A stretch of 33,769 bases of DNA from Nocardiopsis lucentensis DSM 44048 (GTDB lineage: Bacteria > Actinomycetota > Actinomycetes > Streptosporangiales > Streptosporangiaceae), in assembly GCF_000341125.1 (NCBI RefSeq), contig NZ_ANBC01000112.1:17813-51581 (forward strand). The letters run 5' to 3'. Shown here in pieces: positions 1-26,116 of the stretch. The translations under genes and the position numbers were made by a program. Numbering within the stretch: position 1 is the stretch's first letter; each line of letters begins with the position of its first letter. The notes under the pieces are model-generated. The model had not been told where the DNA came from. It saw nothing but the letters and a program-made list of their open reading frames with translations, and did no database searches.

Positions 1-3000
1 CTGGAGGAGGTGCTGGGCGGGCGGGCGTTCGCCGCGCACGTCGAGAAGGCCGCCGAGGCCTACCTCGCCCCGGAGTTCCCCGACTACACGGGCCGCGCCG
101 CCCCCCAGGACCTCTTCGGACTCGGGGCACTCACCTACCTGATCTTCACCGGCCGCCCCCCGGGCCGGAACCGCAGCGAGCTGAGCCAGCAGATCCAGGA
201 GCACGGCTGCCTGACCCCGGCCGCGATCAGCGACGACGTCGTGCCCCAACTCGACACGCTCGTCCGCGAGTCCACCCGGCGCTCCCCCAACGACCGGTTG
301 GCCAACGTGCAGACCTTCCTGCGCATGCTCGACCAGGTCGAGGAGTACCTCACCCTTCCCGAGACCATCACCGACCCCCTCGACGCCCGCCGCGGGGACG
401 AGGTCGTGCAGGGCTGGAGGGTCCGCGAGGTCCTGGGCAAGGGGGCGACCGCCCGCGCCCTGCTCATGGGGCGCGACGGCCATCCCGAGGAGGTCGTCTA
501 CAAGGTCGCCCTCAACCAGGAGTCCGCCGCCAAGGCCCTGCGCACCGAGGCCGAGACCCTGCGCACCGTCGCCGGGAGCACCAGGATCGTGGCGCTGGCC
601 GCCACGGGCGACGAGAGCGCGTCCGGCGTCCTGGAGATCGGTGAGCGCACCATCCTGCCGCTGGAGCGCGCGGGGGAGAGCACCCTCGCCGACTACCTGT
701 CCCGCCAGGGAGCCCTGGGCCCCGGCGAGCTGCTGGGCTTCGGACGGCACCTGTTCGACGCGGTCGAGCACCTGGAGGAGCACGAGGTCTTCCACCGCGA
801 CATCAAACCCGCCAACCTCGGAGTCCGGGAGACCCGCAAGCAGGGCAGGGCCCTGGTGCTGTTCGACTTCTCCCTGTCCCAGGCGTCCGTGGAGAGCGTC
901 ACCGCCGGCACCCGCGGCTACCTCGACCCCTTCCTGGGGCAGGGCCGCCCCTACGACGACGCGGCCGAGCGCTACGCGGTGGCCGTGACCCTGCACGAGA
1001 TGGCCACCGGAGAGCTCCCGGTCTGGGACGACGACGGCGTGGGCCCGGAGTTCCTCGGCGACGACGTCGTGGTCCCCCGCCTGGCCGAGGAGGCCCTGCC
1101 CAAGCAGAGCCGCACCGCACTGGTGGCGTTCTTCCACCGGGCCCTGCACCGGGACCACCGTCAGCGCTTCGGCGCGCTGGCCGACATGCGTGACGCCTGG
1201 GAGTCCGCCTTCCACTCCGGCTCGGTCACCGACCAGGTCGAGGAGGACGAGGAGACCCGGCGGCGCAACGCCGAGGCCGCCACGCTGGACACCCCCCTGA
1301 ACCTGGCCGGGCTCACCCCGCTGGCCCTGGACGCGGCCCAGCGGCTCCTGCGCTGCGACAAGGTCGGCGACCTGCTCAGCAAACCGGTCCGGGAGATCAC
1401 GCACATGCGCGGTGTCCCCCTGGCCGTGCGCAACGAACTGCGCAAGGAGTCCTCCGAATGGCGCAGGCGCCTGGACGTGGCCGAGTACGCGGTCGCGACC
1501 CGGGCCAAGCTGCCGACCGGCGCGGGGGAGGACGTCAAGCGCAACGCCGTCCTGGACCAGGTGATCCGCCAGTTCCTCCCGACCACCACCGACGCCAACC
1601 GGCAGTGGGTGCGGGTGGTGCGTGAGCTGGTCGGCATCCCGGAGGGGCGGAAGGGCCGCAAGCACTGGTGGCCGACCCGGCGCGAGGTCGCCCGCTCCCT
1701 GGGGATCCCCCGCTCCCTGGTGGACGAGAGCCTGCGACAGGCGTGCGCCCACTGGGGAAAGAACGCCTCCCTGCTGGGCTCGGTCCGCGATGACGTCGTG
1801 GACATCCTGTCCCGCAACAGCCGGGTGCGCGAGGTCGGACAGATCGCCGCCGAACTGCTGACCCTGCGCGGCTCGACCCTGGAGGGCGACGAACGCTCGG
1901 TCTACGCCCTGGCCGCCGTGCGCGTGGTCGCCGAGTACGAGGAACAGCGCGTCGAGCAGCGGTTCGTGGTCCGCAGGTACGACCGCAGGGTGCTGGCCGC
2001 CCAGGTGATCGACGACGACCCCCGCGTGCCGGTCGAGGGCGACCTGTTCGACTACGCCGAACTGCTCGGGCTGCGCGCCGACGAACTCGTCTCCCTCGGC
2101 GACGCCGACCTTCTGCCCGGCCCCACCGCGGTCAGGGAGGCGCTGCGCGGAGTCGACGCCCCCGAGGGCATGGAACCGTTCACCGACACCGCCCTGGTGC
2201 AGATCGCGGCGGCCGCCTCCGGCAACGCCGAGGCGACTCCGCGTCTGGAGCTCTACCCGGCCGACCTCGACCTCGAGCGGGCCCTGCGGATCACCCAGGC
2301 CGTCGGCTACCTGGGCAAGCCCGGCATCACCCCGGAGCAGATCCAGGACCGGGTCCTGTCGCGGTTCCCCGCACTGCCCAGGCCCGGCGAGAAACGGTTG
2401 CGGGCACTGCTCAAGCGGCGGCACCCCAAGCTCCAGGAGACTCCGGTCGACGGCACCGTGTGCTGGTACCTGGAGCCGGAGGTCACCACCTACCAGCCCT
2501 CGACCCACACCGGACACCACGAGCCGGACCGGGTCGACGCCGCCTCCGTCGAGACGTGGAACCGCCTGGCGCAGGCCGTGGCGAGGGGCGGCTACCGGGC
2601 GGTCAAGACGTGGATGCCCGACACCGAACGCGCGGCCCACGCGCTGGGGCGGATGCCCGGTGTGGTGTCCTTCGACGTCTCCGCCGAGTTCGTCCACGTC
2701 GTCGACGAGGTCATGGACGGCATGGGAAGCGCCCTGAACTGGGACATCCTGAGCGAGGCCGACAACAGCCGCCCCGAGCCGTTCAACCGGATGCTCGCCG
2801 AGGTGTTCCGCCGCCTGGGGGAGCGTGTCCGCGCCGCCGGGGCCGACGCGCCCACCGGCGACGGGGTGGTGCTGCTGCACCGGGCGACCCCGCTGGCGCG
2901 TTACGAGCCGGGGCGTGCCCTGCTGGGCAGCCTCGTGCAGGAGGCCCGCGAGGCGAACCGTCGCCCGTACGGACTGTGGCTGCTGTGCCCGATGCGGGGG

Positions 3001-3111
3001 CCTCAGGCCGTCGCCGCCCTCGACGGGCGCTCCGCGGGCATCATCGGCGAGTCCGAGCAGGTGCTGCTGCCCAGGGGGTTCTCCGCGCCCGAGGCGGCGT
3101 TGGCGGGCTGA
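1..3111 (+). CDS. pglW: BREX type 2 serine/threonine kinase PglW, 5'-truncated by the window edge
   Basis: The frame is open from base 1, so the gene starts outside the window; about 1,036 residues remain. Residues 1-115 look like the C-lobe of a first kinase domain, with an APE motif (YLAPEF) and a helix-F stretch (DLFGLGALTYLIFTG). A second kinase domain runs from about 140 to 400, with a glycine loop GKGATA (146), VYK lysine (168), catalytic loop HRDIKPAN (265) and a metal-binding DFS in place of DFG (289). The rest, about 600 residues, contains arginine-rich helical segments and matches no domain I can name. In the Pgl/BREX-2 phage-resistance systems of streptomycetes PglW is the kinase component. 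The assignment rests on the tandem kinase layout plus pglX, pglY, pglZ and brxD later on the same strand. It is separated from pglX by about 19 kb of unrelated genes, an unusual spacing. Confidence 0.85.
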   Translation: MEEVLGGRAFAAHVEKAAEAYLAPEFPDYTGRAAPQDLFGLGALTYLIFTGRPPGRNRSELSQQIQEHGCLTPAAISDDVVPQLDTLVRESTRRSPNDRLANVQTFLRMLDQVEEYLTLPETITDPLDARRGDEVVQGWRVREVLGKGATARALLMGRDGHPEEVVYKVALNQESAAKALRTEAETLRTVAGSTRIVALAATGDESASGVLEIGERTILPLERAGESTLADYLSRQGALGPGELLGFGRHLFDAVEHLEEHEVFHRDIKPANLGVRETRKQGRALVLFDFSLSQASVESVTAGTRGYLDPFLGQGRPYDDAAERYAVAVTLHEMATGELPVWDDDGVGPEFLGDDVVVPRLAEEALPKQSRTALVAFFHRALHRDHRQRFGALADMRDAWESAFHSGSVTDQVEEDEETRRRNAEAATLDTPLNLAGLTPLALDAAQRLLRCDKVGDLLSKPVREITHMRGVPLAVRNELRKESSEWRRRLDVAEYAVATRAKLPTGAGEDVKRNAVLDQVIRQFLPTTTDANRQWVRVVRELVGIPEGRKGRKHWWPTRREVARSLGIPRSLVDESLRQACAHWGKNASLLGSVRDDVVDILSRNSRVREVGQIAAELLTLRGSTLEGDERSVYALAAVRVVAEYEEQRVEQRFVVRRYDRRVLAAQVIDDDPRVPVEGDLFDYAELLGLRADELVSLGDADLLPGPTAVREALRGVDAPEGMEPFTDTALVQIAAAASGNAEATPRLELYPADLDLERALRITQAVGYLGKPGITPEQIQDRVLSRFPALPRPGEKRLRALLKRRHPKLQETPVDGTVCWYLEPEVTTYQPSTHTGHHEPDRVDAASVETWNRLAQAVARGGYRAVKTWMPDTERAAHALGRMPGVVSFDVSAEFVHVVDEVMDGMGSALNWDILSEADNSRPEPFNRMLAEVFRRLGERVRAAGADAPTGDGVVLLHRATPLARYEPGRALLGSLVQEAREANRRPYGLWLLCPMRGPQAVAALDGRSAGIIGESEQVLLPRGFSAPEAALAG

Positions 3112-3180: not shown

Positions 3181-3394
3181 AATGAGCTGTCGTCTTCATG
3201 GGGAAATGTCTCCACAGTGGCATTCGGGCGTTCACGCCAGAAGTCGACGGGATTTTCGGATTTCGGAACACTACTGGCAGGTAGGCGCTAGCGTCGTTCT
3301 TGTCGGTCTCCCCGCGCAGCCTTCCGTGCCATTGCCCATGTGATCGGGTGTGCTTCGCTGCTGCGGGTGTCATTCTTCATTCTCTGGGGCGAGT

Positions 3395-5521
3395 GTGCGC
3401 ATCACTTCTGTTCGTGTGCAGAATTTTCGGAGGTTGCGTTCGGTCAAGGTCGACCTTGACAAGGACGCGACGGTCTTCGTGGGGGCGAACAACAGTGGGA
3501 AGACATCGATGACCCATGTCTTCCGCTTCTTCTTCGGCCGAAGGAAGAGCGACCTCACCTTCTACGACTTCAATTCGGGCTGTTGGGACCGCTTCCAGGG
3601 TGTGACGGAGCTCGACGACGAGGCTGTGGGTGAACTGCCGAGGATTCGGCTCGACCTGCTGCTGGAAGTGGGGCGGGAGGAGTGGTATCGGGTCGTCGAG
3701 TTGATGAGCCTCCACGACCTGGACCGGGACATCGGCCGTGTGGCACTGCGATTGGAGTTCGCGCCGCGTCCGGAACTGGCGCCGAGGTTCGCGGAGAGCC
3801 GCGCGAAGGCGAGGCGGGCGAAGCAGGACCTCGCACCTGGGGAGAAGGGGATCTATGAGCCCTGGCCGGAGGACCTGCGCGAGTACCTGGACCGGGAGTT
3901 GGGTTCGGCCTACGCGTTCCGGTACCACGTGATCGATCCCGCCTCCTTCGACCGGGAAGGGGCCGAGTGCGCGGAATCGGATGTCATCGGGCGCGTGTGC
4001 GACTCACCGGCCGCCGCGCAGGAGTTCGTCGACGGACTCATCCACGTCGACATGGTCGACGCGCAGCGTTTCCTGTCCGACGACCAGAACTCCAAGGGCC
4101 GTGACCTGTCCCGGCACGTGCGCAGGATACTCGAGCACTCCCGGTCGGACGAGGTCGACCACGCCGCGCACCAGGCGGTCAAGTTCTCCGAGGCGCGGGT
4201 GCAGTCCTACCTCACCGACAAGTTCGCGCCCACCTTCGAGCGACTGCACGGGGTCGCGGGGCCCGGTGTGCGCAATCCCCGGCTGAGTGTCCGCAGCCGA
4301 CAGAGCGACCAGACTCTCCTCGCCGAGAGCGCATGGGTCTACTACCAGTTCACGGCTGGCGAACACGACGAGAACCGGCAGCTTCCCGAGCGGCACAACG
4401 GATTGGGCTACAAGAACTTCCTGTTCATGCTGCTGGAGATCCACGAGATGCACCGCAGGTGGGTCTCGAGCGCTGAGCGACGGCCCCTGGTCCACCTCGT
4501 GGTCATCGAGGAACCCGAGGCGCATATGCACCCCCAGCTCCAACAGGCGTTCCTGAGGATCGTGCGGGAATTCGTCGCTGAGGAGGGCGAGACCGGCTTC
4601 CACACGCAGCTCATGGTGACCACGCACTCCCCGCACATCATCCACGACACGTCCTTCGACCCGATCCGGTACTTCCGCCGGGCCAACATCGACGGTGTGC
4701 CGATCTGCGAGGTCAGGGACCTGTCACGGCTGCAGTCCGACGACACCCGATTCCTGCGCAGGTTCCTCACGCTGACCAACTGCCACCTGTTCTTCGCCGA
4801 CGCGGTCATCCTCGTGGAGGGCGACGCCGAACGCGTCCTGCTTCCCCTGATGGTCGCCAACCATCCCGGCGACCTGCATCATGTCGCCAGCTCGCACATC
4901 CCCCTCCTGGAGGTCGGCGGGTCCCACGCCCACCGCTTCAAACCGCTCGTGGAGTTCCTGGGGCTGCCCGCCCTGGTGATCACCGACCTGGACAGCGTCA
5001 CCGATACCGTCAGCGCGGACGGTCGTACCCGCAAGAAGGCGTGCCCGGTCGGAACCGACGGAGCTGTGACCGCGAACCCCACACTCGCCGGCTGGCTGCC
5101 TGGGAAGAAGGGTGTCGACGACCTCCTGGCGCTTCCCGAGGGTGACAAGAAAGTCGAGCACCGGGAGGGCATGGTCCTCTCACGTGCGCGTGTCGCCTAC
5201 CAGACCAGGCAGAAGTTCGTGTGGGAGGAGCGGACGCACATCGCGGCCGGGCGGACCTTCGAGGAGGCCATGATCCTGGAGAACCTCCCATGGATCCGCA
5301 CGCACGGCAAGGAGATCGGACTCCGTCCCCCGGAGGGGGAGCCCGTGGAGGAACTCCTGGAGAAGGTTCACGGCTTCGTCCGCAACCCTCCTGCGGGAAA
5401 GACCAATCTCGCCCTGCACTTCTTCGAGCTGTACGCGGACGAACGGTGGAAGAACCCGCAGTACATCAACGACGGGCTGTCGTGGCTGAACGACGAGCTC
5501 GACAGGGAGGTGGAGCTGTGA
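3395..5521 (+). CDS. OLD-family ATPase/TOPRIM nuclease, Gabija GajA-like
   Basis: This is a predicted ATP-controlled DNA endonuclease of about 708 residues. The N-terminal ATPase has a Walker A motif GANNSGKTS (30-38) and, after a long insertion, the second half with VVIEEPEAHMHP (about 370, Walker B) and a switch His in THSPHII (about 412). A TOPRIM domain follows with VEGDAER (474) and VITDLDS (about 532), supplying the acidic metal-binding residues. The GTG at 3395 is preferred because a GGGG-rich ribosome site lies five bases upstream and the product then begins with the usual β-strand (RITSVRVQNFRRL); an upstream start at 3350 is possible. The gene overlaps the UvrD-like helicase downstream by four bases. 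An OLD nuclease coupled to UvrD is the defining layout of Gabija anti-phage systems. The protein is longer than the best-known GajA (under 600 residues), so a related OLD-UvrD variant is possible. Confidence 0.8.
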   Translation: MRITSVRVQNFRRLRSVKVDLDKDATVFVGANNSGKTSMTHVFRFFFGRRKSDLTFYDFNSGCWDRFQGVTELDDEAVGELPRIRLDLLLEVGREEWYRVVELMSLHDLDRDIGRVALRLEFAPRPELAPRFAESRAKARRAKQDLAPGEKGIYEPWPEDLREYLDRELGSAYAFRYHVIDPASFDREGAECAESDVIGRVCDSPAAAQEFVDGLIHVDMVDAQRFLSDDQNSKGRDLSRHVRRILEHSRSDEVDHAAHQAVKFSEARVQSYLTDKFAPTFERLHGVAGPGVRNPRLSVRSRQSDQTLLAESAWVYYQFTAGEHDENRQLPERHNGLGYKNFLFMLLEIHEMHRRWVSSAERRPLVHLVVIEEPEAHMHPQLQQAFLRIVREFVAEEGETGFHTQLMVTTHSPHIIHDTSFDPIRYFRRANIDGVPICEVRDLSRLQSDDTRFLRRFLTLTNCHLFFADAVILVEGDAERVLLPLMVANHPGDLHHVASSHIPLLEVGGSHAHRFKPLVEFLGLPALVITDLDSVTDTVSADGRTRKKACPVGTDGAVTANPTLAGWLPGKKGVDDLLALPEGDKKVEHREGMVLSRARVAYQTRQKFVWEERTHIAAGRTFEEAMILENLPWIRTHGKEIGLRPPEGEPVEELLEKVHGFVRNPPAGKTNLALHFFELYADERWKNPQYINDGLSWLNDELDREVEL

Positions 5522-7619: not shown

Positions 7620-9923
7620 TCAGGCCAACGTCAGCCGGTGTCTCCTGTCTGCCATGCCCAGCCGCGTGCACATGCCCTCGAAGTGCTTGGGGTCGGTGTC
7701 TCGGATCAGCGTGAACACCCCCTTCAGGACGTGCGTCGCGGCGGCGTCCAGGATCGGTTTGCCGACCGCGTCGGGGGTCCGGTGCGAATTGCTGTGCAGG
7801 AATCGGGTCAGTTCCCTGGCGAGGTCGCGCTTTCCGGGGAGCAGCTCTTCGACGGCCTCGGTCAGGTTCCCGCCCTTCTCCGGTACCCGGAACTGGAGGA
7901 AGTGTTCCAGCATCTTGCGCGCGTCGTTGGGAACCGAGGTGGCCAGGCGCAGGTCGGCGTCCAACGACGTGCCGTCGATCGCCTCCAGCAGGTTGTGGGT
8001 CACGCTGTGGAAGAGCAGGAGGTACTCGGTCTCCAGGATGACCGACTCCCTGCCGCGCTTGGCGTCCAGCGGAACGAGCACTGGTGCGCGATCCGCGCCC
8101 TCCCCGACCGACTTCATCATGTGCAGCGTCGTGGAGCTGTCCTTGCGCTTGAGGTCCTTGCCCCAGTGGCGCAGGAAGACGGTGTTGTGCGTGAGGACGA
8201 AGAGCTGTCGGCACAGCCCGGCGTCCGGGTCCAGTTTGGCGATCAGCATGGAGTAGACGCCGAACATCAGGTGGTCGTCCAGGCTGGAGACCGGGTCGTC
8301 GACGATGACGACGGTCTTCTCCAGGCTCCGGCCTTCGCCTACCAGGCTGGTGAGGAAGTAGATCAGGGCGATCGCGGTCCGTTCGCCCTCGCTGAGGTGG
8401 CGGGCGGGGCGGTCGTGGCGCAGCACCCGGTAGCGGCCGTCGCTGTGGACGAATCGCAGGTCCGATCGCCGCAGTAGGGAGGAGATGTCCCTGTTGAGTT
8501 CGGTGAGGAAGTACTCGGGGTCGTGTCCGAGCCGGGGGGTTTCCCGCAGTAGCTCACGGCACTCGTCCAGCGTTCGCTCCTGCTCCTGTATCAGCCGTGT
8601 CAGCTTCGACACCTCGCCGTCGTGGTCGCTGACCGGGCCCACGAGTCCGTGGAGCATGCGCTCGAACTCGCGGTCCGCGGCTCGCGCGCGTTCGTCGGCG
8701 ATTGAGTCCGTGCGCGCGTTGTGGTCGTCGATCATCCGGCCCAGCCCGGCGGTGTCGACCGCCCTCGGTGCGATGTCCGAGGGCAGCGCGAGCGGGGCGA
8801 ACATCTCGCCCCTCTTGCGCTCCAGGACCTCCACGACGCGGTCCAGCCCGTTCTGGAAGGCCGTGACCGCGCTCTCGACCTCCTTGCACGTCTCGTCGTA
8901 GTCCTCGCGCATGTCCTCGAAGAACTGTGTGCGGTGCGGGAGCGCGGAGGCGAAGTGTTCGGCCTGGGAGCGCAGGAGCCGCGTCTGTGCGACGGCGTCG
9001 TCGAGTTCGGCCAGGAGGCGGGCGTAGCCTTCGTCGAAGTGGCGTTCCAGCCGCGCCCTGCGGCCGTCGGTGATCTGCCCCTCGCAGAACAGGCAGGTGT
9101 CGCGGTCGGCGTGCAAGCTGCCGCCTTCGCGCACCCATGCCTCGTGTTCGGGACGGCCGATCAGTGCGTCGAGAGCCTCGGAGGCCACGGTGCGGGCCAA
9201 CAGAGCCACGACGTGCCCCTCCAGTTCGCCGATCGCGAGGCCGCGGGCGTTGACCGGGGAAATCGGATCGGGGGCGGAGCCGGCGATCAGGCTCCGGTCA
9301 CGGTCGCGTGCGGCGTCGAGCTCCTCCTGAGGGGTGAGCGGAGCCTTCAGAGCCCGCTTCACGTGGTTCCGGTTGAAGCCCCTGGAGAAACGGCCGCTCA
9401 CGGGCCCGAGTTCGCGGTGGGCCCTGCTCCCCAGTTCGGTGCACAGACGGTCCCGCTTGCGCTCGACCGACGCGCGCTTCTTGCGCAGGTCCTCCAGTTC
9501 GGCGCTGGCCCGTTCGAGTCCGGCCTGCGCGGCGTCCCTGCGCTCCTGCTGTTCGATGGTGGGCCGTCCCAGGTAGAGCAGCGCGTCAGCGTCGGCGCCG
9601 CCCTCTCCCTCGTGTGCGTCGAAGCGAAGGTTGCGCCGCACGTACTCGGCGCCGAAGAGGCGGACGTCGTCCCAGATCCAGTGCCCAGGACCCTCGACCG
9701 TCTCCGTGGCGTCCGGGGCGTCACCGGTCCCGACCTTGACCCTCATGCCGTGGGACCACGCGGGATCGTCCGGAACGCCGTTGATCAGCTCGGCGAACGT
9801 GCTCTTCCCGGTGCCGTTGGGGGCGTAGATCAGGTTGAGTTTCTCGAAGTCGACGGCGTTGTTGTGCTGCCTCCATCCCTGGAAGCAGCGGAAGTCCTTG
9901 ACACGGGTGACGCGCTTGATCAA
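7620..9923 (-). CDS. PrrC/RloC-like ABC-ATPase, predicted anticodon nuclease
   Basis: An SMC-like ABC ATPase of 767 residues. Walker A is YAPNGTGKST (about 33-42), a CLFC motif at 277-280 lies between predicted coiled coils (zinc-hook position), the signature is LSEGERTAIAL (about 510), Walker B is IVDDPVSSLDD (about 541) and the switch His is in VLTHNT (about 575). DDPVSSLD is typical of the PrrC/RloC (AAA_13) group. Near the C-terminus R669-x3-E673 followed by H710 or H714 resembles the Arg-Glu-His nuclease triad of PrrC, which cuts tRNA-Lys when restriction is disabled; the zinc hook favours RloC. The TTG at 9923 is chosen because GAGGA lies seven bases upstream and the protein then starts MIKRVTRVKDFRCF; an ATG at 10001 would add a 26-residue extension without homology. 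It is monocistronic within the defence cluster. The nuclease role is inferred; the ATPase fold is clear. Confidence 0.75.
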   Translation of the reverse strand: MIKRVTRVKDFRCFQGWRQHNNAVDFEKLNLIYAPNGTGKSTFAELINGVPDDPAWSHGMRVKVGTGDAPDATETVEGPGHWIWDDVRLFGAEYVRRNLRFDAHEGEGGADADALLYLGRPTIEQQERRDAAQAGLERASAELEDLRKKRASVERKRDRLCTELGSRAHRELGPVSGRFSRGFNRNHVKRALKAPLTPQEELDAARDRDRSLIAGSAPDPISPVNARGLAIGELEGHVVALLARTVASEALDALIGRPEHEAWVREGGSLHADRDTCLFCEGQITDGRRARLERHFDEGYARLLAELDDAVAQTRLLRSQAEHFASALPHRTQFFEDMREDYDETCKEVESAVTAFQNGLDRVVEVLERKRGEMFAPLALPSDIAPRAVDTAGLGRMIDDHNARTDSIADERARAADREFERMLHGLVGPVSDHDGEVSKLTRLIQEQERTLDECRELLRETPRLGHDPEYFLTELNRDISSLLRRSDLRFVHSDGRYRVLRHDRPARHLSEGERTAIALIYFLTSLVGEGRSLEKTVVIVDDPVSSLDDHLMFGVYSMLIAKLDPDAGLCRQLFVLTHNTVFLRHWGKDLKRKDSSTTLHMMKSVGEGADRAPVLVPLDAKRGRESVILETEYLLLFHSVTHNLLEAIDGTSLDADLRLATSVPNDARKMLEHFLQFRVPEKGGNLTEAVEELLPGKRDLARELTRFLHSNSHRTPDAVGKPILDAAATHVLKGVFTLIRDTDPKHFEGMCTRLGMADRRHRLTLA

Positions 9924-10066
9924 CGGGGGTCCTCGAAACCGCGTGAAGAGTGTGAACAGGAGAATCCAGGATGACAGGGCCGCACCCGTGATGTGCGGCA
10001 TTCTTCCCAGTTCACGCGGTCTTCGTCCGGCTCCGTGGAGTCCGGAAGACGATATCGATGGACAAG

Positions 10067-10095
10067 ACTATAAAAACAGCGCATCGAGCTATAAA
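10067..10095 (-). promoter_or_regulatory. Candidate promoter of the PrrC/RloC-like gene
   Basis: Read on the minus strand, TTTATA (10090-10095) and TATAGT (10067-10072) are separated by exactly 17 bases. The -10 is one base from TATAAT. It would give a leader of about 135 bases before the TTG start. Confidence 0.5.
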
Positions 10096-10373
10096 TCTCA
10101 CCAGAGTGAAAGGAATGCATCAAACATTCGAAAAAGAACATTCCAATCCGGGTAGGTCCTCACACCGGGGGATGAACCGGACAGGGAACGGAAGGGTTGA
10201 CGAGTCCCGCAGGGCATGGCCATCGGGTCTCGCCACCGGTCGCGGGGACCGGCCGACCGCGTCGGTCCGCTCTTCGAGCGGTCACACCGCCCGGAACACC
10301 CCCAACGGCCCGCCGCCACCGCGACAACCCCGACGGGGCAGGGGTTTGCGGATGGCCGGAAGGGGACACCGGC

Positions 10374-14419: not shown

Positions 14420-15457
14420 TCAGCGGCGGGTGCGTACACGGGCGCGTACGAGCCAGCCGTCGCCTGTCTCTTCCAGGACCGGGGACAGCGTGCCGGCACT
14501 GGGTCGATCGGCCTGTCGCCACTGGTGGACCCACCGCCGTACCTCCCGCCCGGAGGTGGTGTCCCCGGTGCTGAGCAGCCGGCCGCCACCCAGCATCGCG
14601 GCGGCACCTCCCGCCGAGGCGTGCCCCGGGGCCCAGCCGCGTGCGCCCAGGCCGAACATGCTCAGCCCTTCGGGGGCGGTCGCGTACAGGTAGGCGTGGA
14701 AGTCGGCGACCGGTTCCTCCGGGCCGAGCAGCGCCCCGCCCTCTGTTCGAGCACCGACGGCCAGGGCGTCCACCAGTGACCGCGCCCTCGCGGCGGTGTC
14801 CTCCCCGGAGATCCACATGCCGCTGACCCACCAGGGGTTTCCCTCCTGGTCGGCGGTCTGTGCGTGCACGCCGCGCGGCGGCACCAGCCACTGGGTGAGT
14901 TCCTCGGGGTGCATCTCCACGTACCCGCCCGGCCACAGCCGCTCGGCAGCCAACCGTCCGTCGCGCGTGCGGTGGGCACGCACGATCGCGTTGGCCCGGG
15001 GAAGCGGGGCGATCGCGACCGGCACGACCAGCGCCGCGCCCGGTACGCACTGGTCGGCCCAGGCCCGGTGCAGCAGGTCGCTGCTGGCCCAGGCCACGAT
15101 CCGGTCGTAGGGGGCGTGGTCGGGTGCGCCCTCAGTCCCGTCACGGGTGACGACGCGGATGTTGTCGGCGCCCCTCCGGGCGTGCAGGTCGCGCGCCCGT
15201 ACGACCAGGTCGTCCACCACGTCCACGGAGACCACCGAGCCGCCCTCACCCACGAGCGCGCCCAGCAGGGCCCCGGAGAAACCGGACCCGGTGCCGATCT
15301 CCAGCACCCGCATCCCCGGGCGCACGTCCAGGCGCTCCAACCCGGCGGTGATCGCCTCGGCCGAACTGCTCTGCCGGACGAGGCTCCCGTCCTCCCGGTG
15401 GGTGTAGTACTCCTCCGGTACGGAGGCCAGGGCGTCCTGGATACGGCTTGTGGCCAT
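14420..15457 (-). CDS. PCMT-type SAM-dependent methyltransferase
   Basis: A 345-residue protein whose N-terminal half resembles protein-L-isoaspartate O-methyltransferase: the lead-in SLVRQSSSAEAI, SAM-binding motif I VLEIGTGSG (51-59), an acidic motif around VVSVDVVDD and the YDRIVAWAS strand. The C-terminal extension of about 150 residues is not part of the minimal PCMT fold. PCMT enzymes methylate isoaspartate or related carboxylates; homologues also tailor ribosomal peptides. The ATG at 15457 is chosen because GAGG lies six bases upstream; an ATG four codons earlier has no such site. It is divergent from the MNDDGNN mini-gene and near the MccB-like and HIT genes, so a tailoring role on the peptide is an attractive inference. 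A housekeeping repair role seems less likely given the extension and the context, but is not excluded. Confidence 0.75.
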   Translation of the reverse strand: MATSRIQDALASVPEEYYTHREDGSLVRQSSSAEAITAGLERLDVRPGMRVLEIGTGSGFSGALLGALVGEGGSVVSVDVVDDLVVRARDLHARRGADNIRVVTRDGTEGAPDHAPYDRIVAWASSDLLHRAWADQCVPGAALVVPVAIAPLPRANAIVRAHRTRDGRLAAERLWPGGYVEMHPEELTQWLVPPRGVHAQTADQEGNPWWVSGMWISGEDTAARARSLVDALAVGARTEGGALLGPEEPVADFHAYLYATAPEGLSMFGLGARGWAPGHASAGGAAAMLGGGRLLSTGDTTSGREVRRWVHQWRQADRPSAGTLSPVLEETGDGWLVRARVRTRR

Positions 15458-15591
15458 CGGTTTCCTCATCTGTGGTCGTAGTGTTCTTCTCTTCGACACG
15501 GGGGAGCCAGGGCGTCTGTCGGACCCGATACACCCGAAGGCTCGGGTGGGCGTCGGCCGCACGGCGTCGGAAGCAATGTCGAGCAATGCCG

Positions 15592-15620
15592 TTGGCGGGA
15601 GCCCGGCGAAGGGCTTTGAT
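15592..15620 (+). promoter_or_regulatory. Weak candidate promoter for the heptapeptide mini-gene
   Basis: TTGGCG (15592-15597) and TTTGAT (15615-15620) are 17 bases apart on the plus strand, about 70 bases ahead of the ribosome-binding site. The -35 is good, the -10 only fair (T in place of A at its second base). Confidence 0.25.
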
Positions 15621-15687
15621 GAGTTTCGAGGCCATGGAGTGTCCCGGGTCCGCTCATGGTCTTCGCGCACACGACCACCTTCGACGT

Positions 15688-15694
15688 GAGGAGG
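15688..15694 (+). promoter_or_regulatory. Consensus ribosome-binding site of the heptapeptide ORF
   Basis: GAGGAGG ends five bases before the ATG at 15700, an optimal Shine-Dalgarno placement and among the strongest in this window. It serves no longer ORF, because the frame closes after seven codons. Confidence 0.6.
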
Positions 15695-15699
15695 CCGAG

Positions 15700-15723
15700 A
15701 TGAACGACGACGGCAACAACTGA
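15700..15723 (+). CDS. Putative heptapeptide precursor MNDDGNN, MccA-like
   Basis: ATG plus six codons and TGA encode MNDDGNN. The known microcin C precursor MccA of E. coli is also seven residues (MRTGNAN). In that pathway MccB attaches AMP through a phosphoramidate bond to the C-terminal Asn, and the N-formyl-Met matters for recognition. Here the peptide also ends in Asn and keeps a Gly-Asn-x pattern near the end. The evidence is its length, the C-terminal Asn, a consensus ribosome site five bases upstream, a 17-bp inverted repeat 24 bases downstream that would end a very short mRNA, and its position beside an MccB-like gene and a HIT hydrolase gene. It runs opposite to those two genes, unlike the mccA-mccB order of E. 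coli, so expression would be independent. ORFs this short arise by chance, so function remains an inference. Confidence 0.55.
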   Translation: MNDDGNN

Positions 15724-15747
15724 CGACGCCGAGGACCGACATGACAC

Positions 15748-15807: not shown

Positions 15808-16296
15808 TCAGCGGTCCGCGTTTCTGATGCGCTCCGCGAGACCCGCCAGCCAGGTGTCGTCGGCGCGCTCGTGGTCGTGGGAGGACAGGTAGCCCTGGTA
15901 GCGGTCGAAGTAGCCGTCGACGGGCGAGACCACTTCCCGCCAGTCCTCACCCGCGTTGCCGGCGGGTCCGTGCATGGGGAAGAGCTTGGCGTGGGCGTGG
16001 TCGACCCCGTAGCCCTCGTACATGATCCCGGTGCGCGCCACGTCGGGAAAGGTGGCATCCAGGAGGCGGGCGACTTCGCGGGCGGCCAGGTGCAGGGCCG
16101 CGTATTCCCGGGGTTCCAGATCCACCACGTAGCTGGTGCGGTGGGCCTTGGGGATGACCACGGAGAACCCCTCCGTGTTGGGGAAGATCGACAGGAAGGC
16201 CACGTGTGAGGCGTCCTCCCAGATCCGGTGGGCGGGGGCGTGCCCGCTCACGATGCGGCAGAAGACACAGCCAGGGGTGGAAGGTGCGGTGTTCAA
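15808..16296 (-). CDS. HIT-family hydrolase, possible peptidyl-nucleotide immunity or processing enzyme
   Basis: A 162-residue histidine-triad protein with an opening CVFCRIVSG, the IPKAHRTSYVVDL strand and the active-site motif H100-A-H102-A-K104. In Hint-type enzymes the middle His of HxHxH is the nucleophile; it is kept here, while the third His is Lys. HIT proteins hydrolyse nucleotide phosphoramidates and related bonds, and a HIT-type phosphoramidase (MccH) is known to give immunity in some microcin C-like clusters by cutting the P-N bond. The start is TTG at 16296, supported by GAGGAG a few bases upstream, and overlaps the stop of the MccB-like gene, so the two are translationally coupled. 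This coupling is the main reason to propose a dedicated function such as self-protection rather than general dinucleotide clean-up; that function is inference. Confidence 0.8.
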   Translation of the reverse strand: MNTAPSTPGCVFCRIVSGHAPAHRIWEDASHVAFLSIFPNTEGFSVVIPKAHRTSYVVDLEPREYAALHLAAREVARLLDATFPDVARTGIMYEGYGVDHAHAKLFPMHGPAGNAGEDWREVVSPVDGYFDRYQGYLSSHDHERADDTWLAGLAERIRNADR

Positions 16297-17402
16297 CGGG
16301 CTCCTCGAAGTCGGTGCACGGAGGGTCGGACGCCGGCGCAGGTGGGGCAGTCGGGGGAGCGTTCGACGGGTTGCTCATCAAGGGCAAGCTCATGAGTCCA
16401 CACGCCCATACGCCGGTTCAGGGACGCGGGTTCACCGAACCCGCCCAGGTGTCGTAGAACGTCCAGTGCCGCCAGAGACGAGGCGAGCATGTTGACCGGG
16501 CCGTTGGACGGCGCCTGGTAGCGACCGTTGATGCGTGTGATCAGCTCGCGCAGCTCTGGATCGTCGGTGGGTGGCCGGGCGGTGAGCGTATGACAGTCCC
16601 AACAGCCCGTGACTCCGGGGATCACGAGCGGTCCCCACACCGCGATGTCGTTGACGTAGCAGGTGTTCAGCCAGACCCGTCCGGACGTGACGCAGTGCGC
16701 GTTGACCAGGTCGGTGAGGCCGGGGGAATCGGCCGAGACCAGGATCAGATCGGCATCAGGCAGGGTATCGAGACTTTCCTCATCGGTGACTTCCCCGGTG
16801 ATGGACCGAATACGGCATGTCGAATCGCGCCGCCGCAGTTCCCGGGCCAGCACCTCGGCCTTGGGCAGGTCGATATCGGCCTCGGTGAACAGGAACTGGC
16901 GGGTGAGGTTGCTCAGTTCGACGCGGTCGGAGTCCACCAGGGTCAGTTCTCCAACGCCGGCGGTGGCGAGCGCGGCGGCCACCAGGTTGCCGATACCGCC
17001 GCAGCCGAGCAGGAGTACACGGGACTGGGACAGCCGTTGCTGTACCTGTTCGGCTTGAGCACCGGACAGCTCGTAGAACAGGGCGTGCCGACTGTAACGG
17101 TCCGCGGGGTCGTAGGAGTGCGCGGAGATCAGATAGGAGTCGCGTTCCAACGTCAGCATCACCGCGTCGGCCAACGACCCGTCCACGCCGCACGACTGGG
17201 TGAGGAACACCAGTGCCTCCGAACGTGTGCGCGGAGTCATGTGGTGATGGGCGAGTTGAACGAGCGGTTTCCAGAGCCGACGGTCGTTGATGGCCTGACG
17301 GATCGATCCGAAGCCCAGGAACAGGGTCTGCGCCTGGACGCCGATCCGCACGTAGGGGGCCAGGACACGCGGGGTCTCGGAGCGGTGGGCGCAAAGGTGC
17401 AC
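16293..17402 (-). CDS. MccB-like E1-type peptide adenylyltransferase (ThiF family)
   Basis: A 369-residue ThiF/E1-like enzyme. Residues 1-100 form an N-terminal region like the peptide-clamp of MccB. RYSRHALFY (102-110) leads into the adenylation domain with LLGCGGIGN (131-139), VDSDRVE (156-162), NLTRQFLF (165-172), SAD (223-225) and YVNDIAVWGPLVIPG (249-263). Zinc ligands are C267/C270 and C352/C355. As I remember the E. coli MccB sequence, the match is close along the whole core (YSR..LFY, GCGGIGN, NLTRQ.LF, YVNDIAV.GPL). MccB uses ATP to convert the C-terminal Asn of a heptapeptide to a peptidyl-AMP phosphoramidate. The GTG start at 17402 has AAAGG ten bases upstream. It heads an operon with the HIT gene and faces the MNDDGNN mini-gene. 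ThiF proteins also work in sulfur transfer and ubiquitin-like conjugation, but no sulfur carrier is nearby. Confidence 0.85.
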   Translation of the reverse strand: MHLCAHRSETPRVLAPYVRIGVQAQTLFLGFGSIRQAINDRRLWKPLVQLAHHHMTPRTRSEALVFLTQSCGVDGSLADAVMLTLERDSYLISAHSYDPADRYSRHALFYELSGAQAEQVQQRLSQSRVLLLGCGGIGNLVAAALATAGVGELTLVDSDRVELSNLTRQFLFTEADIDLPKAEVLARELRRRDSTCRIRSITGEVTDEESLDTLPDADLILVSADSPGLTDLVNAHCVTSGRVWLNTCYVNDIAVWGPLVIPGVTGCWDCHTLTARPPTDDPELRELITRINGRYQAPSNGPVNMLASSLAALDVLRHLGGFGEPASLNRRMGVWTHELALDEQPVERSPDCPTCAGVRPSVHRLRGAR

Positions 17403-19842: not shown

Positions 19843-20100
19843 TTACGGACGGTCGGAGCGGGTGGCGTTGAGGAAGGCATCCCACTCGCGGGCAGGGAAC
19901 GGGATGTGGCCCTTGGTGGGGTTCTTCGAGTCCCGAACGGCGGCACCACAGGGGAGGTCGGCGACCTCCACACAGTTCGGCTCTTGGCCGCTGTAGCTGC
20001 TCTTGCGGAAGCCCGTCGGGATGTGCGCGACCTCCACACAGTTGATGCGGTCGCTGCTGTAGCTGGACTTGAAGAACATCAGTTCGTCAGTCGTGCTCAT
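19843..20100 (-). CDS. DUF397 protein with two tandem repeats
   Basis: An 85-residue protein with two DUF397-type units: FFKSSYSSDRINCVEVAHI and FRKSSYSGQEPNCVEVADL, the second followed by the full AAVRDSKNPTKGHIPFPAREW tail. In streptomycete WhiJ-type loci, small DUF397 proteins partner with an adjacent XRE/DUF5753 regulator and are thought to modulate its DNA binding. The ATG at 20100 lies inside the 3' end of that regulator gene (14-base overlap), so the two are co-translated. Upstream starts at 20169 would add residues with no similarity to the family. Confidence 0.85.
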   Translation of the reverse strand: MSTTDELMFFKSSYSSDRINCVEVAHIPTGFRKSSYSGQEPNCVEVADLPCGAAVRDSKNPTKGHIPFPAREWDAFLNATRSDRP

Positions 20101-22278: not shown

Positions 22279-22402
22279 GGTGTCTTTCGCTGTGGATCGG
22301 CGCGCGGACCGGCGGTCGGGGTTGAGGAATCGAGGTGCGACCAGCACCCTCCAGACGGGACAATGAAGGAACCCTGTCCCTCCCGTCGTGTTTGGAGCCC
22401 TC

Positions 22403-25400
22403 GTGGTCGATCATGCGCAGCTACTGAAGGACTTGCAGAAGCAGATGCGTTTGCTGGAGACAGATCTTCGGGAGCGTGGCGAGGACTCCACCGCGATCAA
22501 GGGCACCGACTCGAACGGGGAGCCGGAGACCTTCGACACCTACCTGAAGCGCGAGTACCAGCGAGCCCGAGACGCCGAGCGGACCGCGATCACCGAGGGT
22601 GAGTGGCGTGAAGGGCAGATCACCCAGGCCGCAGCGGCATGGGTGCTGTCCACGGTGTTCCTCCGCTTCTGCGAGGACAACGGACTCTTGGAGCAGCCCT
22701 TCATCACGGGGCCGAAGGACGAACGCGACCGGTACAGCGTTGCTCAGGAGTTGAAGGAAGCTTGGGTTCTCCAAGGGCGGAGCGAGAACCCGGATGCGCC
22801 CGAGCGCACCGACCGGGACTGGTTGGAGCACGCCTTCGCGCAGATGAGCGTGTCCTCGGTGATGGCCGGGTTGTTCGACAAGAAGCATAACCCGATGTGG
22901 TCTATCACCCCGTCTCACCAGGCGGCCAGGGCGCTCATCGAGTTCTGGCGCGAGGTGGGGGAGGACGGCCACCTTGTTCACGACTTCACCGACCCCGACT
23001 GGAACACCCGCTTTCTCGGTGACCTGTACCAGGACCTGTCCGAAGTGACGCGGAAGACCTACGCGCTTCTCCAGACGCCGGAGTTCGTTGAGGAATTCAT
23101 CCTCGACTACACACTGGAACCTGCCATCGAGGAGTTCGGGCTCGACGGCAACCGCATCTACCAGGAAGAAAACAAGGGCTTCCGTCTGATCGACCCAACC
23201 TGTGGGTCAGGGCACTTCCTGCTGGGTGCTTTTCACCGCCTGCTCAACAAGTGGCGCGAGACCGAGCCTGGTACGTCGGACTGGGACCTGATTAGTCGAA
23301 GCCTGCGTAGTGTGCATGGTGTCGACAAGAACCCGTATGCGGTGGCGATCGCCCGATTCCGCCTCCTCATCGCTGCGATGAAGGAAGGTGGAATCACCTC
23401 CCTGAGTGCGAGTAACCCTGAGTGGCCCATCGTTGTGGCCACGGGTGACTCGCTTCTCCATGGACGTGGTGCGCCTCAGCGGCAGGAGGGCCTGTTCGGC
23501 GCGAGCCTGGTACATCGATATTCGTCGGAGGACGTGTACGACTACGAGGGTGAGTACGACTTGTTGGAGGTGGCGAGCTACCACGCGGTGGTGGGAAACC
23601 CTCCGTACATCACGGTGAAGGACAAGCAGGAGAACCAAAACTACCGGGCCCGGTACTCAACATGCTCGGGAACGTACGCTCTCTCAGTCCCGTTCGCCGA
23701 GCGATTCTTCAACCTTGCCAAGCGTGCTGGTGGTGACAAGATCGGCGCGGGCTTCGTGGGACAGATCACCGCGAACTCCTTCATGAAGCGTGAGTTCGGC
23801 AAGAAGCTCATCGAGGAGTTCTTCCGCAACGAGGTGACCCTTACGCATGTGATCGACACGTCAGGCGCCTACATCCCCGGGCACGGAACGCCGACAGTGA
23901 TCCTGGTGGGGCGGAACCTGGTGCCCTCGCACACAGGAAGCATCCGGGCGGTCCTGGGTATCCGGGGTGAGCCCAGTCAGCCCGAGAATCCGACTGAAGG
24001 GCTGGTGTGGTCTGCAATTGTGGAGCAGATCGGAGATCCAGGTCAACTAGTTTCCGAGTGGGTGAGTGTTGCTGACTTTCCCTGGCGAGACTTTACGGTT
24101 CATCCTTGGAGTCTGTCGGGTGGGGGTGCAGGAGATGTGGTCCAGGTGATCGAGTCTGGTGCGCGAGGCTTGGCTGGGTGCATCGAAAAACCCGTGGGTA
24201 GGGCGATTCGAGCAGGGGCAGACGAAGCATATATGCGCCCTTCGCGCTCTACCTACAGCCCGCCCGGTGCTGCTCGTGGGCTCAAGGATCTGGCAGTAGG
24301 CGAAGTTATTAGAGATTGGGACTTGTCTCCCTCGGAGAAGATTTGGTATCCATACCATTCTTTGGAGGATGTGCTATCTCTGGTCAAATTTGATCTTTGG
24401 CCTCTTCGTTCTGTTCTTGCTGCCCGAAGAACATTCAAGGGAAACATGGAAGATGCGGGTCTCTCATGGTGGGAGTACATGCAACATACTGCATCTGCGT
24501 ATTCGACTCCTGAGTCGATCGTCTTTGCTTTTGTGGCTACGCATAACCACTTCGTGCTTGATCGGGGTGGGAAGGTCTTCAAGCAGTCGGCTCCGGTGAT
24601 TAAGTTGCCGGAGGGGGCTACTGAGGACCAACATCTGGAGTTGCTGGGGGTGTTGAACTCGTCGGCGGCGTGCTTCTGGCTCAAGCAGGTGAGCCAGTCC
24701 AAGGGTAACGGCGGCATCGGTGGGGGAATCTCTGACGAACTGTGGGAGCACCGGTTCGAGTTCACTGGCACCAAGCTCCAAGAATTCCCGCTTCCTCAGA
24801 AGCTTCCCCTGGCTCGATCCAAGGAGCTTGACGCGCTCGCGCAGAAGCTTTCTTCCCTTGAACCCTCCACAGTCGTGGAGTCGGCGACCCCGACCGCAGA
24901 ACTCCTCAAGGACGCGCACGCCGACCACGTCGCCACCCGTCAGCGGATGATCGCTCTCCAGGAGGAACTCGACTGGGACGTCTACCACCGCTACAACCTC
25001 ATCTCCGACGCCCAACTTGCTGAGCTGACGATCCCCGACACCGCTGACGTCCCCAGGATCAACCTGGGAGAGCGGGCCTTCGAGATCGTGCTCGCGCGCA
25101 AGATGGTCGCGGGCGAAGCCTCCACCGAGTGGTTCAACAGGCACGGCTCCACGCCCATCACTGAAATCCCCTCCCACTGGCCGGACGCCTACAAGCAGGT
25201 CGTCACCAAGCGCATCGAACTCATCGAGTCCGACAAGAACATCAACCTCCTCGAACGCCCCGAGTACAAGCGCCGCTGGCAGTCCGAACCCTGGGAGAAG
25301 AAGCAGAAGGCCGCCCTCAAGTCCTGGCTGCTGGACAAGTGTGAGGACCGCCGCCTCTGGTTCACCACCGACGACTACGGCGACGAACGCACCCGCCCGC

Positions 25401-26116
25401 TCTCCGTCCGCGCCCTGGCCAACCGGGTCCGCGACCTGTTCCCCGAGGCCGCCGAGGTCGCCGCGCTCTACGACTCCGCCACGGACTTCGGGCAGGTCAT
25501 CGAGGAGATCACCAAGACCGAGCACGTCCCCTACCTCGCGGCCCTGCGCTACAAGGACACCGGCATGCGCAAGCGCGCCGACTGGGAGCACGTGTGGGAC
25601 CTCCAGCGCCAGGAGGACAAGCTCAACGCCGACCTCGCCGAGGGCGAGCAGGAGAAGCGCCTCGACACCCCCGTCCCGCCCAAGTACACGTCCGCGGACT
25701 TCCGTCGGAACGAGTACTGGGCCAACCGGGGCAAGCTCGACGTCCCCAAGGAGCGGTTCGTCTCCTACCCGGGTGCCGAGACCGACACCGATCCGACCCT
25801 CCTGCTCGGTTGGGCCGGGTGGGACCACGCTCAGCAGGCCGACGCTCTGGCCACCCTCGCCCACGAGCGCCGCGACGAACTCGGCTGGGGCGGTGAGGAC
25901 ACCCGGGACAAGTTGGTGCCCCTCCTGGCCGGGCTCCTCGAACTGCTGCCCTGGGTCGAGCAGTGGCACACCGAGACCGACGAGTACGGTGACACCCCCG
26001 CCGAGCACGTTCGGGAGGACCTCACGGACCTGCGCAACTCCACCGGCATCACCGACTCGGAGATGACCGACTGGCGTCCCCCGGCACCGACCCGGGCTCG
26101 GCGCAAGAAGTCCTGA
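22403..26116 (+). CDS. pglX: BREX type 2 adenine-specific DNA methyltransferase PglX
   Basis: A 1,237-residue N6-adenine methyltransferase of the large PglX type. The SAM site is LIDPTCGSGHFLLG (262-275) and the catalytic motif NPPY is at 399-402. A target-recognition region follows, then a long C-terminal helical part. In BREX/Pgl systems PglX marks host DNA and is needed for defence against phage. The start is the GTG at 22403 because GGAG lies five bases upstream and the product then opens VVDHAQLLKDLQKQ, the usual beginning; a GTG five codons earlier is less well placed. Base use is uneven: around 24300-24420 GC falls to about 43%, whereas beyond 24880 it returns to about 75%, pointing to a swapped recognition region. 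A terminator follows, then pglY after 421 bases. Confidence 0.93.
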   Translation: MVDHAQLLKDLQKQMRLLETDLRERGEDSTAIKGTDSNGEPETFDTYLKREYQRARDAERTAITEGEWREGQITQAAAAWVLSTVFLRFCEDNGLLEQPFITGPKDERDRYSVAQELKEAWVLQGRSENPDAPERTDRDWLEHAFAQMSVSSVMAGLFDKKHNPMWSITPSHQAARALIEFWREVGEDGHLVHDFTDPDWNTRFLGDLYQDLSEVTRKTYALLQTPEFVEEFILDYTLEPAIEEFGLDGNRIYQEENKGFRLIDPTCGSGHFLLGAFHRLLNKWRETEPGTSDWDLISRSLRSVHGVDKNPYAVAIARFRLLIAAMKEGGITSLSASNPEWPIVVATGDSLLHGRGAPQRQEGLFGASLVHRYSSEDVYDYEGEYDLLEVASYHAVVGNPPYITVKDKQENQNYRARYSTCSGTYALSVPFAERFFNLAKRAGGDKIGAGFVGQITANSFMKREFGKKLIEEFFRNEVTLTHVIDTSGAYIPGHGTPTVILVGRNLVPSHTGSIRAVLGIRGEPSQPENPTEGLVWSAIVEQIGDPGQLVSEWVSVADFPWRDFTVHPWSLSGGGAGDVVQVIESGARGLAGCIEKPVGRAIRAGADEAYMRPSRSTYSPPGAARGLKDLAVGEVIRDWDLSPSEKIWYPYHSLEDVLSLVKFDLWPLRSVLAARRTFKGNMEDAGLSWWEYMQHTASAYSTPESIVFAFVATHNHFVLDRGGKVFKQSAPVIKLPEGATEDQHLELLGVLNSSAACFWLKQVSQSKGNGGIGGGISDELWEHRFEFTGTKLQEFPLPQKLPLARSKELDALAQKLSSLEPSTVVESATPTAELLKDAHADHVATRQRMIALQEELDWDVYHRYNLISDAQLAELTIPDTADVPRINLGERAFEIVLARKMVAGEASTEWFNRHGSTPITEIPSHWPDAYKQVVTKRIELIESDKNINLLERPEYKRRWQSEPWEKKQKAALKSWLLDKCEDRRLWFTTDDYGDERTRPLSVRALANRVRDLFPEAAEVAALYDSATDFGQVIEEITKTEHVPYLAALRYKDTGMRKRADWEHVWDLQRQEDKLNADLAEGEQEKRLDTPVPPKYTSADFRRNEYWANRGKLDVPKERFVSYPGAETDTDPTLLLGWAGWDHAQQADALATLAHERRDELGWGGEDTRDKLVPLLAGLLELLPWVEQWHTETDEYGDTPAEHVREDLTDLRNSTGITDSEMTDWRPPAPTRARRKKS

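What the first reader, a model, noticed from the sequence alone, without database searches (positions are those of the whole stretch)
7620..9923. Predicted zinc-hook anticodon nuclease near a BREX methylation system
Seen: an ABC ATPase with CLFC hook motif, DDPVSSLD and a C-terminal R669-x3-E673...H710/H714 pattern. Known: PrrC and RloC have an Arg-Glu-His nuclease centre and ABC ATPase control; PrrC is silenced by a restriction enzyme and freed when phage disables it. Inference: this protein could be the back-up for BREX-2 or Gabija when either is inhibited. Such pairing with BREX-2 is, to my knowledge, not established.
Basis: partly seen in the sequence, partly recalled or inferred. Interest (0 to 1): 0.62.

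Follow-up and report, generated by a model that had tools for sequence, protein, structure and literature searches.

The report
RloC-type tRNA-cutting toxin inside BREX-2 locus
A soil bacterium carries, inside its BREX-2 anti-phage locus, a gene that looks like a known self-controlled toxin (RloC) that cuts tRNAs to stop a phage infection; related species keep it in the same place, which suggests, but does not prove, that the two defences work together.

Summary
Window 7620-9923 (minus) encodes a 767-residue ABC ATPase with a CLFC hook motif and R669-x3-E673-x40-H714. H714 is the conserved histidine, not H710. The protein fits RloC on each sequence feature tested: length, ABC motifs, CxxC, triad spacing with a Ser before the His, and a weak start codon (non-ATG in 7 of 8 same-order genes). 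In two overlapping alignments (22 and 32 rows, down to 16-17% identity) both hook cysteines and R669 are invariant. It is not PrrC.

In 40 genomes of the genus (Nocardiopsis), all 7 intact copies lie in or beside a BREX-2 locus (6 between pglW and pglX, 1 upstream of pglW), antiparallel to the pgl genes. Two more copies are broken, one of them beside a divergent PglX. Gabija accompanies 4 of 7. The gene is absent from 4 of 11 close BREX-2 loci, so it is cargo, not core.

The link is partly in print (2013). Published RloC has its own DNA-triggered switch and ignored its host's restriction enzyme, so I favour a self-controlled second-line toxin housed in BREX-2. A BREX-2-guarding role is possible but untested. 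Nothing here shows tRNA cleavage.

The parts
7620..9923 (-). RloC-type ABC ATPase / predicted anticodon nuclease, 767 aa, TTG start
9798..9815 (-). Walker A GTGKST (residues 37-42)
   Evidence: K40 22 of 22 in A2
9084..9095 (-). zinc-hook motif CLFC (residues 277-280)
   Evidence: both Cys 22 of 22 in A2 and 32 of 32 in A3
8382..8396 (-). ABC signature LSEGE (residues 510-514)
8277..8300 (-). Walker B / D-loop DDPVSSLD (residues 542-549)
7905..7919 (-). R669-x3-E673 of the predicted nuclease triad
   Evidence: R669 22 of 22 and 32 of 32; E673 21 of 22 and 30 of 32
7782..7796 (-). H710-x-x-S713-H714; H714 is the predicted triad histidine
   Evidence: H714 21 of 22 and 27 of 32; H710 9 of 22 and 10 of 32
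10060..10150 (-). AT-richer stretch upstream of the gene (GC 0.40, window 0.69) with one sigma-70-like match (10067-10095); possible promoter region
   Evidence: consensus match only
1..3111 (+). pglW, 3' part (gene cut by the window edge; 1455 aa in the genome)
3350..5521 (+). gajA (Gabija)
   Evidence: PADLOC GajA 630 bits
5500..7458 (+). gajB (Gabija helicase); start approximate
   Evidence: PADLOC GajB 612 bits
10460..13996 (+). nSTAND NTPase with WD40 repeats, divergent neighbour
22388..26116 (+). pglX (BREX-2 methyltransferase)
   Evidence: NF033451 1711 bits
26514..30341 (+). pglY (BREX-2 ATPase)
   Evidence: NF047891 1008 bits, under that model's cut-off of 1700; PADLOC BrxC-PglY 1340 bits
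30338..33283 (+). pglZ (BREX-2)
   Evidence: NF033446 676 bits

Best explanation
An RloC-type anticodon nuclease carried as exchangeable cargo in a BREX-2 locus. Its Rad50/SMC-like ABC head (about residues 1-120 and 470-640, from the model) and a helical insert with the CxxC hook hold the C-terminal nuclease (about 640-767, R669/E673/H714) inactive. DNA ends or phage DNA bound by the head drive ATP hydrolysis and release the nuclease, which cuts host tRNA in the anticodon loop, stops translation and aborts infection when front-line defence (BREX-2, and in this strain Gabija) has failed. Shown here: the sequence architecture, family-wide conservation, the head fold of the model, and the recurrent BREX-2 location. 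Taken from published RloC: DNA-dependent activation and tRNA cleavage. Inferred: that both hold for this protein, and the order of defence.
For: Pfam and PADLOC near full-length matches; motifs and invariance. E673-x40-H714 preceded by Ser, length 767 and a non-ATG start match the RloC description: R-x3-E-x36-52-H, Ser often before His, 658-897 aa, 13 GUG and one UUG start among 70, read there as low expression (PMC2610378, passages); here 7 of 8 same-order genes start with TTG (6) or GTG (1). In that paper Ala at any of the three residues abolished activity and toxicity. AF2 model with 32 rows, mean pLDDT 79; VIA-align Z 15.0-17.5 for the 50 rows shown, SMC, Rad50 and RecF heads over about residues 1-640. 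Published RloC is switched on by its ATPase with linear DNA, and a DNA-break inducer activates it in its host (PMC3874168, passages). G547 and G682 carry relatives without a BREX-2 PglX hit, so the protein type does not need BREX-2.
Against: No activity, substrate or trigger was tested. Foldseek's global scores are low (TM by query 0.27 or less in the rows shown), and the searches are filled by the ABC head, so the C-terminal fold is untested. The Javan105 protein annotated as RloC aligns with Asp at both the E673 and H714 columns; 5 of 32 rows in A3 lack the aligned His; the distant G547 protein has CPFC and an R-x3-E but no SH after it (not aligned). Finding the intact gene only at BREX-2 in the genus is more than a fully independent toxin would predict.
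Confidence: 0.62

Rival explanations
1. A PrrC-like guard of BREX-2: the nuclease is held inactive by an intact BREX-2 protein or complex and released when a phage anti-restriction factor (for example a DNA mimic) disables BREX-2.
For: In the genus 7 of 7 intact copies are in or beside a close BREX-2 locus; the copy in a genome without PglX (G003) is broken. In the order all 8 intact copies are in genomes with PglX, which 85 of 345 have (p 1.0e-5 ignoring phylogeny). On the rpoB tree the gene needs at least 5 changes, and in 3.8 of 5 independent pairs on average BREX-2 changes with it, never against. Precedents: PrrC with its type Ic enzyme (PMC2610378, PMC3874168 passages), PARIS sensing Ocr (PMC12839542 passages), Ocr inhibiting BREX (PMC7261183, start of abstract in a listing).
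Against: The sign test on the tree is not significant (p 0.125). Decay without BREX-2 rests on one clear case: the other broken copy (G006) lies about 1.7 kb from a divergent BREX-2-family PglX; counted as BREX-2-linked, the contrast is p 0.22, counted as outside it is 0.028. G224 has the gene 1.38 Mb from its PglX. G547 and G682 have relatives without BREX-2. In A. baylyi the R-M protein did not silence RloC. Defence genes cluster anyway. The gene is absent from 4 of 11 genomes with PglX of 74% identity or more.
Confidence: 0.2
2. A defence-island passenger with no functional tie: it lies in the pglW-pglX interval because that interval is a hotspot for defence cargo. (Compatible with the best explanation as to mechanism.)
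For: The interval and its flanks also hold Gabija, WD40-STAND, an AbiL/RloB-type pair, a JetD-like protein, a caspase-like protein, DrmA and an NB-ARC/TPR gene in different species. Genes are exchanged: G025 shares 89% of this protein but 74% of PglW and PglX with the window.
Against: A pure passenger should also be found intact elsewhere in the genus, as intact GajA is (3 of 8 outside); for this gene it is 0 of 7. The difference is not significant (p 0.12).
Confidence: 0.32
3. Not a tRNA nuclease but a Rad50-like DNA repair or sensing ATPase, or an RNase with another target.
For: The head fold matches Rad50/SMC; no close relative with a solved structure was found by sequence.
Against: PMC2610378 notes that Rad50 and SbcC lack the C-region with the triad (passage). 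R669 is the only invariant residue after H579.
Confidence: 0.1

Closest known systems
RloC (Geobacillus kaustophilus, Acinetobacter baylyi)
   Same: ABC head, CxxC hook insert, R-x3-E-x36-52-(S)H, length, some non-ATG starts (PMC2610378, PMC3874168 passages)
   Different: [quoted passage not shown] substrate and trigger of this one unknown. No direct alignment with either characterised RloC was made; their sequences were not at hand
PrrC
   Same: ABC ATPase plus R/E/H triad
   Different: PrrC is 341-416 aa without a hook insert and is linked to type Ic hsd genes (PMC2610378, PMC3874168 passages); the PADLOC PrrC model gives only 27 bits, in the ABC part
PADLOC candidate family PDC-S06
   Same: near full-length match, 415 bits
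   Different: a candidate family in that library; no function stated in the output
RloC-family HEPN genes in Pgl operons (PMC3710099, 2013)
   Same: same pairing of an RloC-type gene with pglX/Y/Z
   Different: reported there as a few instances within a large predicted operon; here it recurs across a genus and is transcribed against the pgl genes
PARIS (AriA/AriB)
   Same: an ABC ATPase controlling a tRNA-cutting nuclease, recruited to BREX loci (PMC12839542 passages)
   Different: OLD-type ATPase and separate TOPRIM nuclease; AriA matches this protein only weakly

Membership tests
RloC | ABC ATPase motifs (Walker A, signature, Walker B/D-loop, His switch) | tested here: met
RloC | CxxC hook in a helical insert splitting the ATPase | tested here: met
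   motif invariant 22 of 22 and 32 of 32; helices on both sides in the model; zinc binding not tested
RloC | R-x3-E-x36-52-H, often Ser before His | tested here: met
   x40, SH; published range from PMC2610378
RloC | length 658-897 aa | tested here: met
   767 aa
RloC | HEPN fold of the nuclease domain | tested here: inconclusive
   mostly helical in the model; the fold searches test about residues 1-633 only
RloC | tRNA anticodon cleavage and wobble-nucleotide excision | not testable with these tools
   needs an assay
RloC | activation by linear DNA and ATP | not testable with these tools
   needs an assay
PrrC | 341-416 aa, no hook insert | tested here: not met
   767 aa with CxxC insert
PrrC | linked to a type Ic hsd locus | tested here: inconclusive
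   none of the neighbours scanned is an hsd gene, but not every ORF was scanned
BREX-2 core component | present wherever the core genes are | tested here: not met
   absent from 4 of 11 genomes with PglX of 74% identity or more
Rad50/SbcC | ends with the ABC head, no conserved region after it | tested here: not met
   about 125 further residues with invariant R669 and conserved E673/H714

The most novel reading that the evidence does not exclude
In Nocardiopsis an RloC-type anticodon nuclease has become dependent on BREX-2: BREX-2 holds it in check or licenses it, it fires when a phage blocks BREX-2, and it tends to decay when BREX-2 is lost. That would make it a tRNA nuclease guarding a BREX-2 system, a PrrC-like logic rebuilt on an RloC chassis.
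Probability: 0.2. Interest if true: 0.68.

Novelty: new member of a known kind. Interest (0 to 1): 0.4.

Why it matters
RloC is a published toxin whose natural role and partners in phage defence are still open, and BREX effector logic is also debated. A genus in which the gene is found intact only in or beside BREX-2 loci, with a close relative (G028) whose BREX-2 lacks it, gives a natural comparison for asking whether a tRNA nuclease backs up BREX. If the two are independent, the finding is an ordinary RloC in a defence island.

Tried and rejected
Sequence search of solved structures with P0001 gave one match at E 0.61; with A1 only three AriA chains near E 0.0005. Foldseek on viral models: the named rows shown are Rad50/SbcC/SMC-like or recombination endonuclease subunits, many rows have no name. 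No HEPN or PrrC structure is among the rows shown, but one domain fills the list, so this says nothing about the C-terminus. Upstream element: the AT-richer stretch aligns among G000, G029 and G025, not clearly with the other five sequences, though G022 has an AT-richer dip too; not pursued. A classical HEPN Rx4-6H arginine: R707-x6-H714 exists in the window protein but is not conserved (rows printed). Gabija as the main partner was set aside: both genes intact in 4 genomes, this gene alone in 3, GajA alone in 4 (Fisher p 0.02, weaker than BREX-2). Limits: the PF13166 search in the order scored only 3 candidates per genome and the class searches 2 or 3, so misses are possible; G009 and G019 are not in the rpoB tree (38 of 40); BREX-2 there means PglX of 74% identity or more. 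Counting any BREX-2 PglX (16 of 40), 7 of 16 genomes have the intact gene against 0 of 24 (p 6e-4). Dropped rows: of 72 viral loci, 28 were examined and 26 used (L193 a near-copy, L196 an early stop); L018 also dropped; of 148 plasmid records with a match, 14 were fetched, all in A2; L008 (broken G003 copy) was left out of A1-A3.

Full report
WHAT IS THERE. The ORF at 7620-9923 on the minus strand encodes 767 residues with a TTG start. Pfam AAA_13 covers residues 11-719 with 314 bits. PADLOC candidate family PDC-S06 covers 2-752 with 415 bits; the PADLOC PrrC model gives 27 bits and only in the ABC part. The weak start is shared: at the same place the eight same-order genes have TTG in 6, GTG in 1 and ATG in 1.

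CONSERVATION. A1 holds eight proteins of the same order (the other seven 45-92% identical to the window protein): C277, C280, R669, E673, S713 and H714 are invariant, H710 is not. A2 holds 22 proteins down to 16% identity, including 14 plasmid relatives and a Streptococcus prophage protein annotated as RloC: C277, C280 and R669 22 of 22, E673 21, H714 21, H710 9. A3 holds 32 proteins, 26 of them from viral contigs: C277, C280 and R669 32 of 32, E673 30, H714 27, H710 10. The alignments overlap: A2 shares six rows with A1 and A3 six of the same genes, and some viral-contig proteins are near-copies of plasmid ones, so they are not independent samples. R669 is the only invariant residue after H579 in both A2 and A3. 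Against the reading: the prophage protein in A2 has Asp at both the E673 and H714 columns, five rows of A3 lack the aligned His, and the distant G547 protein has no SH after its R-x3-E (not aligned).

FAMILY. The RloC description is 658-897 aa, split ABC ATPase with CxxC, R-x3-E-x36-52-H often with Ser before His, and some GUG or UUG starts (PMC2610378, passages). The window protein meets each: 767 aa, CLFC, x40, SH, TTG. In that paper alanine at any triad residue abolished activity and toxicity. The HEPN survey places the RloC and PrrC nuclease domains in the HEPN superfamily (PMC3710099, passages). I could not align the protein with the two characterised RloC proteins; their sequences were not at hand.

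STRUCTURE. The 32-row AlphaFold2 model has mean pLDDT 79.1 and pTM 0.51. Residues 1 to about 640 match SMC, Rad50 and RecF heads at Z 15.0-17.5 in the 50 rows shown. Foldseek's best rows are Mre11-Rad50, Lamassu LmuACB, cohesin, condensin and retron ATPase chains, with low global TM-scores (0.27 or less by query). The last 125 or so residues are mostly helical but were not tested alone. The hook lies in a loop between helices.

NEIGHBOURHOOD. The locus has pglW (1455 aa in the genome), gajA, gajB, this gene, an nSTAND-WD40 gene, other cargo, pglX, pglY, pglZ, then a partial brxD match and brxHI. NCBIfam PglY scores 1008 bits against a cut-off of 1700; PADLOC gives BrxC-PglY 1340 bits.

RECURRENCE. 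In 40 genomes of the genus the gene is found in 9: 7 intact (G000, G001, G022, G024, G025, G029, G039); one broken by stops with no match found to residues 1-67, Walker A included, in a genome without a PglX hit (G003); one C-terminal remnant about 1.7 kb from a divergent, 39% identical PglX (G006). PglX of at least 74% identity is in 11 genomes and any PglX at E 1e-100 in 16. All 7 intact copies lie in or beside the close BREX-2 locus: 6 between pglW and pglX and 1 (G022) about 4.5 kb from the pglW match, on its upstream side; all 7 run against the pgl genes. Fisher for intact gene against close PglX: p 1.8e-5; counting G003 as present, 1.3e-4; against any PglX, 7 of 16 and 0 of 24, p 6e-4. 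These ignore phylogeny. On an rpoB tree of 38 of the 40 genomes the gene needs at least 5 changes; in 5 independent pairs BREX-2 goes the same way in 3.8 on average and never the other way, p 0.125, which cannot reach significance with so few pairs. That the gene decays without BREX-2 rests on G003 alone: the intact/broken contrast is p 0.028 if G006 counts as outside and 0.22 if it counts as BREX-2-linked. In the order, 9 of 345 genomes have AAA_13 matches at E 1e-30 and 85 have PglX; the 8 intact copies are all in PglX genomes (p 1.0e-5), but in G224 the two lie 1.38 Mb apart. In an even draw of 325 genomes of the class, 4 have a match: three of this genus and G547; G682 came from an earlier draw of 394. 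G547 and G682 have no PglX hit. Ten ORFs near those two copies, chosen from 33 of 260 aa or more that include the copies themselves, were scanned with Pfam: none matched a defence family, three had no match.

NOT GABIJA, NOT CORE. GajA is in the same locus in 4 of 7. Of 8 intact GajA in the genus, 5 are in or beside a BREX-2 locus (the fifth, G033, just upstream of pglW) and 3 are in genomes without a PglX hit; a ninth, in G011, is broken. BREX-2 with close PglX lacks the gene in G005, G007, G028 and G033, whose cargo differs. G028 is a near relative of the window strain (PglW 95%), so the gene can be gained or lost while BREX-2 stays. In G025 the protein is 89% but PglW and PglX only 74% identical to the window's, so cargo appears to move between BREX-2 backbones.

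HOW IT PROBABLY WORKS. Published RloC from G. kaustophilus needs its ATPase and linear DNA for activity; in A. baylyi a DNA-break inducer activates RloC and R-M mutants behave as wild type, though the authors leave R-M control during phage infection open (PMC3874168, passages). I therefore put the self-switched toxin first. The PrrC-like guard of BREX-2 stays open because the intact gene is found only at BREX-2 in the genus. Passenger status is the null; it is not excluded.

PRINT. PMC3710099 (passages) states that in a few instances RloC-family HEPN proteins lie in a predicted operon with pglX, pglY and pglZ and proposes suicide or a smaller phage burst. PMC12839542 (abstract, outline, passages) describes backup nucleases, including HEPN proteins and Gabija- or PARIS-like modules, beside BREX loci; its main text has no occurrence of RloC or PrrC. 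My searches in the held open-access library listed no paper on a recurrent RloC link with BREX-2 in Nocardiopsis; subscription papers are mostly not held, listings were capped and most listed papers were not read.

VERDICT. A new member of the known RloC kind, in a notable and recurrent genomic setting that is partly in print. Interest 0.4.

Noticed in passing
L068 3589-6810 (G028) and L039 6241-9414 (G025): A second, divergent PglX-like gene (40% identity) lies upstream of pglW in two species.
   Followed up: no
window 9921-9923 and relatives: TTG or GTG starts in 7 of 8 same-order genes of this protein, as if weak translation is kept.
   Followed up: partly
L087 8048-10076 and L032 7081-8559 (G001): An AbiL-like pair (ATPase plus RloB-family protein) beside, and a JetD-like protein some kilobases from, the RloC-type gene.
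   Followed up: partly
window 16293-17402 and 14420-15742, minus strand: A ThiF/E1-like gene and a PCMT-type methyltransferase gene lie in the cargo region.
   Followed up: partly
window 17793-19165 and 20087-20953: A DUF6879 gene and DUF5753 helix-turn-helix regulators; a relative of the 20087-20953 regulator is found in all 10 other close BREX-2 loci compared.
   Followed up: partly
L048 about 1583 (outside the window): The brxD reading frame is interrupted at an ambiguous base in the assembly; whether the gene is really broken cannot be judged.
   Followed up: partly
L035 2400-4715 (G003) and L036 14500-15338 (G006): Two further copies in the genus are broken: one without its N-terminal part in a genome without a PglX hit, one a C-terminal remnant beside a divergent PglX.
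   Followed up: yes
L159 3938-9612; L151 11923-21674: Distant plasmid relatives lie beside a PaeR7I-type restriction gene and methylase (Phaeobacter) and beside transposition genes with TnsA-like and TniQ products (Rhodococcus).
   Followed up: no
plasmid search: 148 plasmid records carry a relative, many at the same 23.9% identity, among them conjugative enterobacterial plasmids and large Pseudomonas plasmids.
   Followed up: partly
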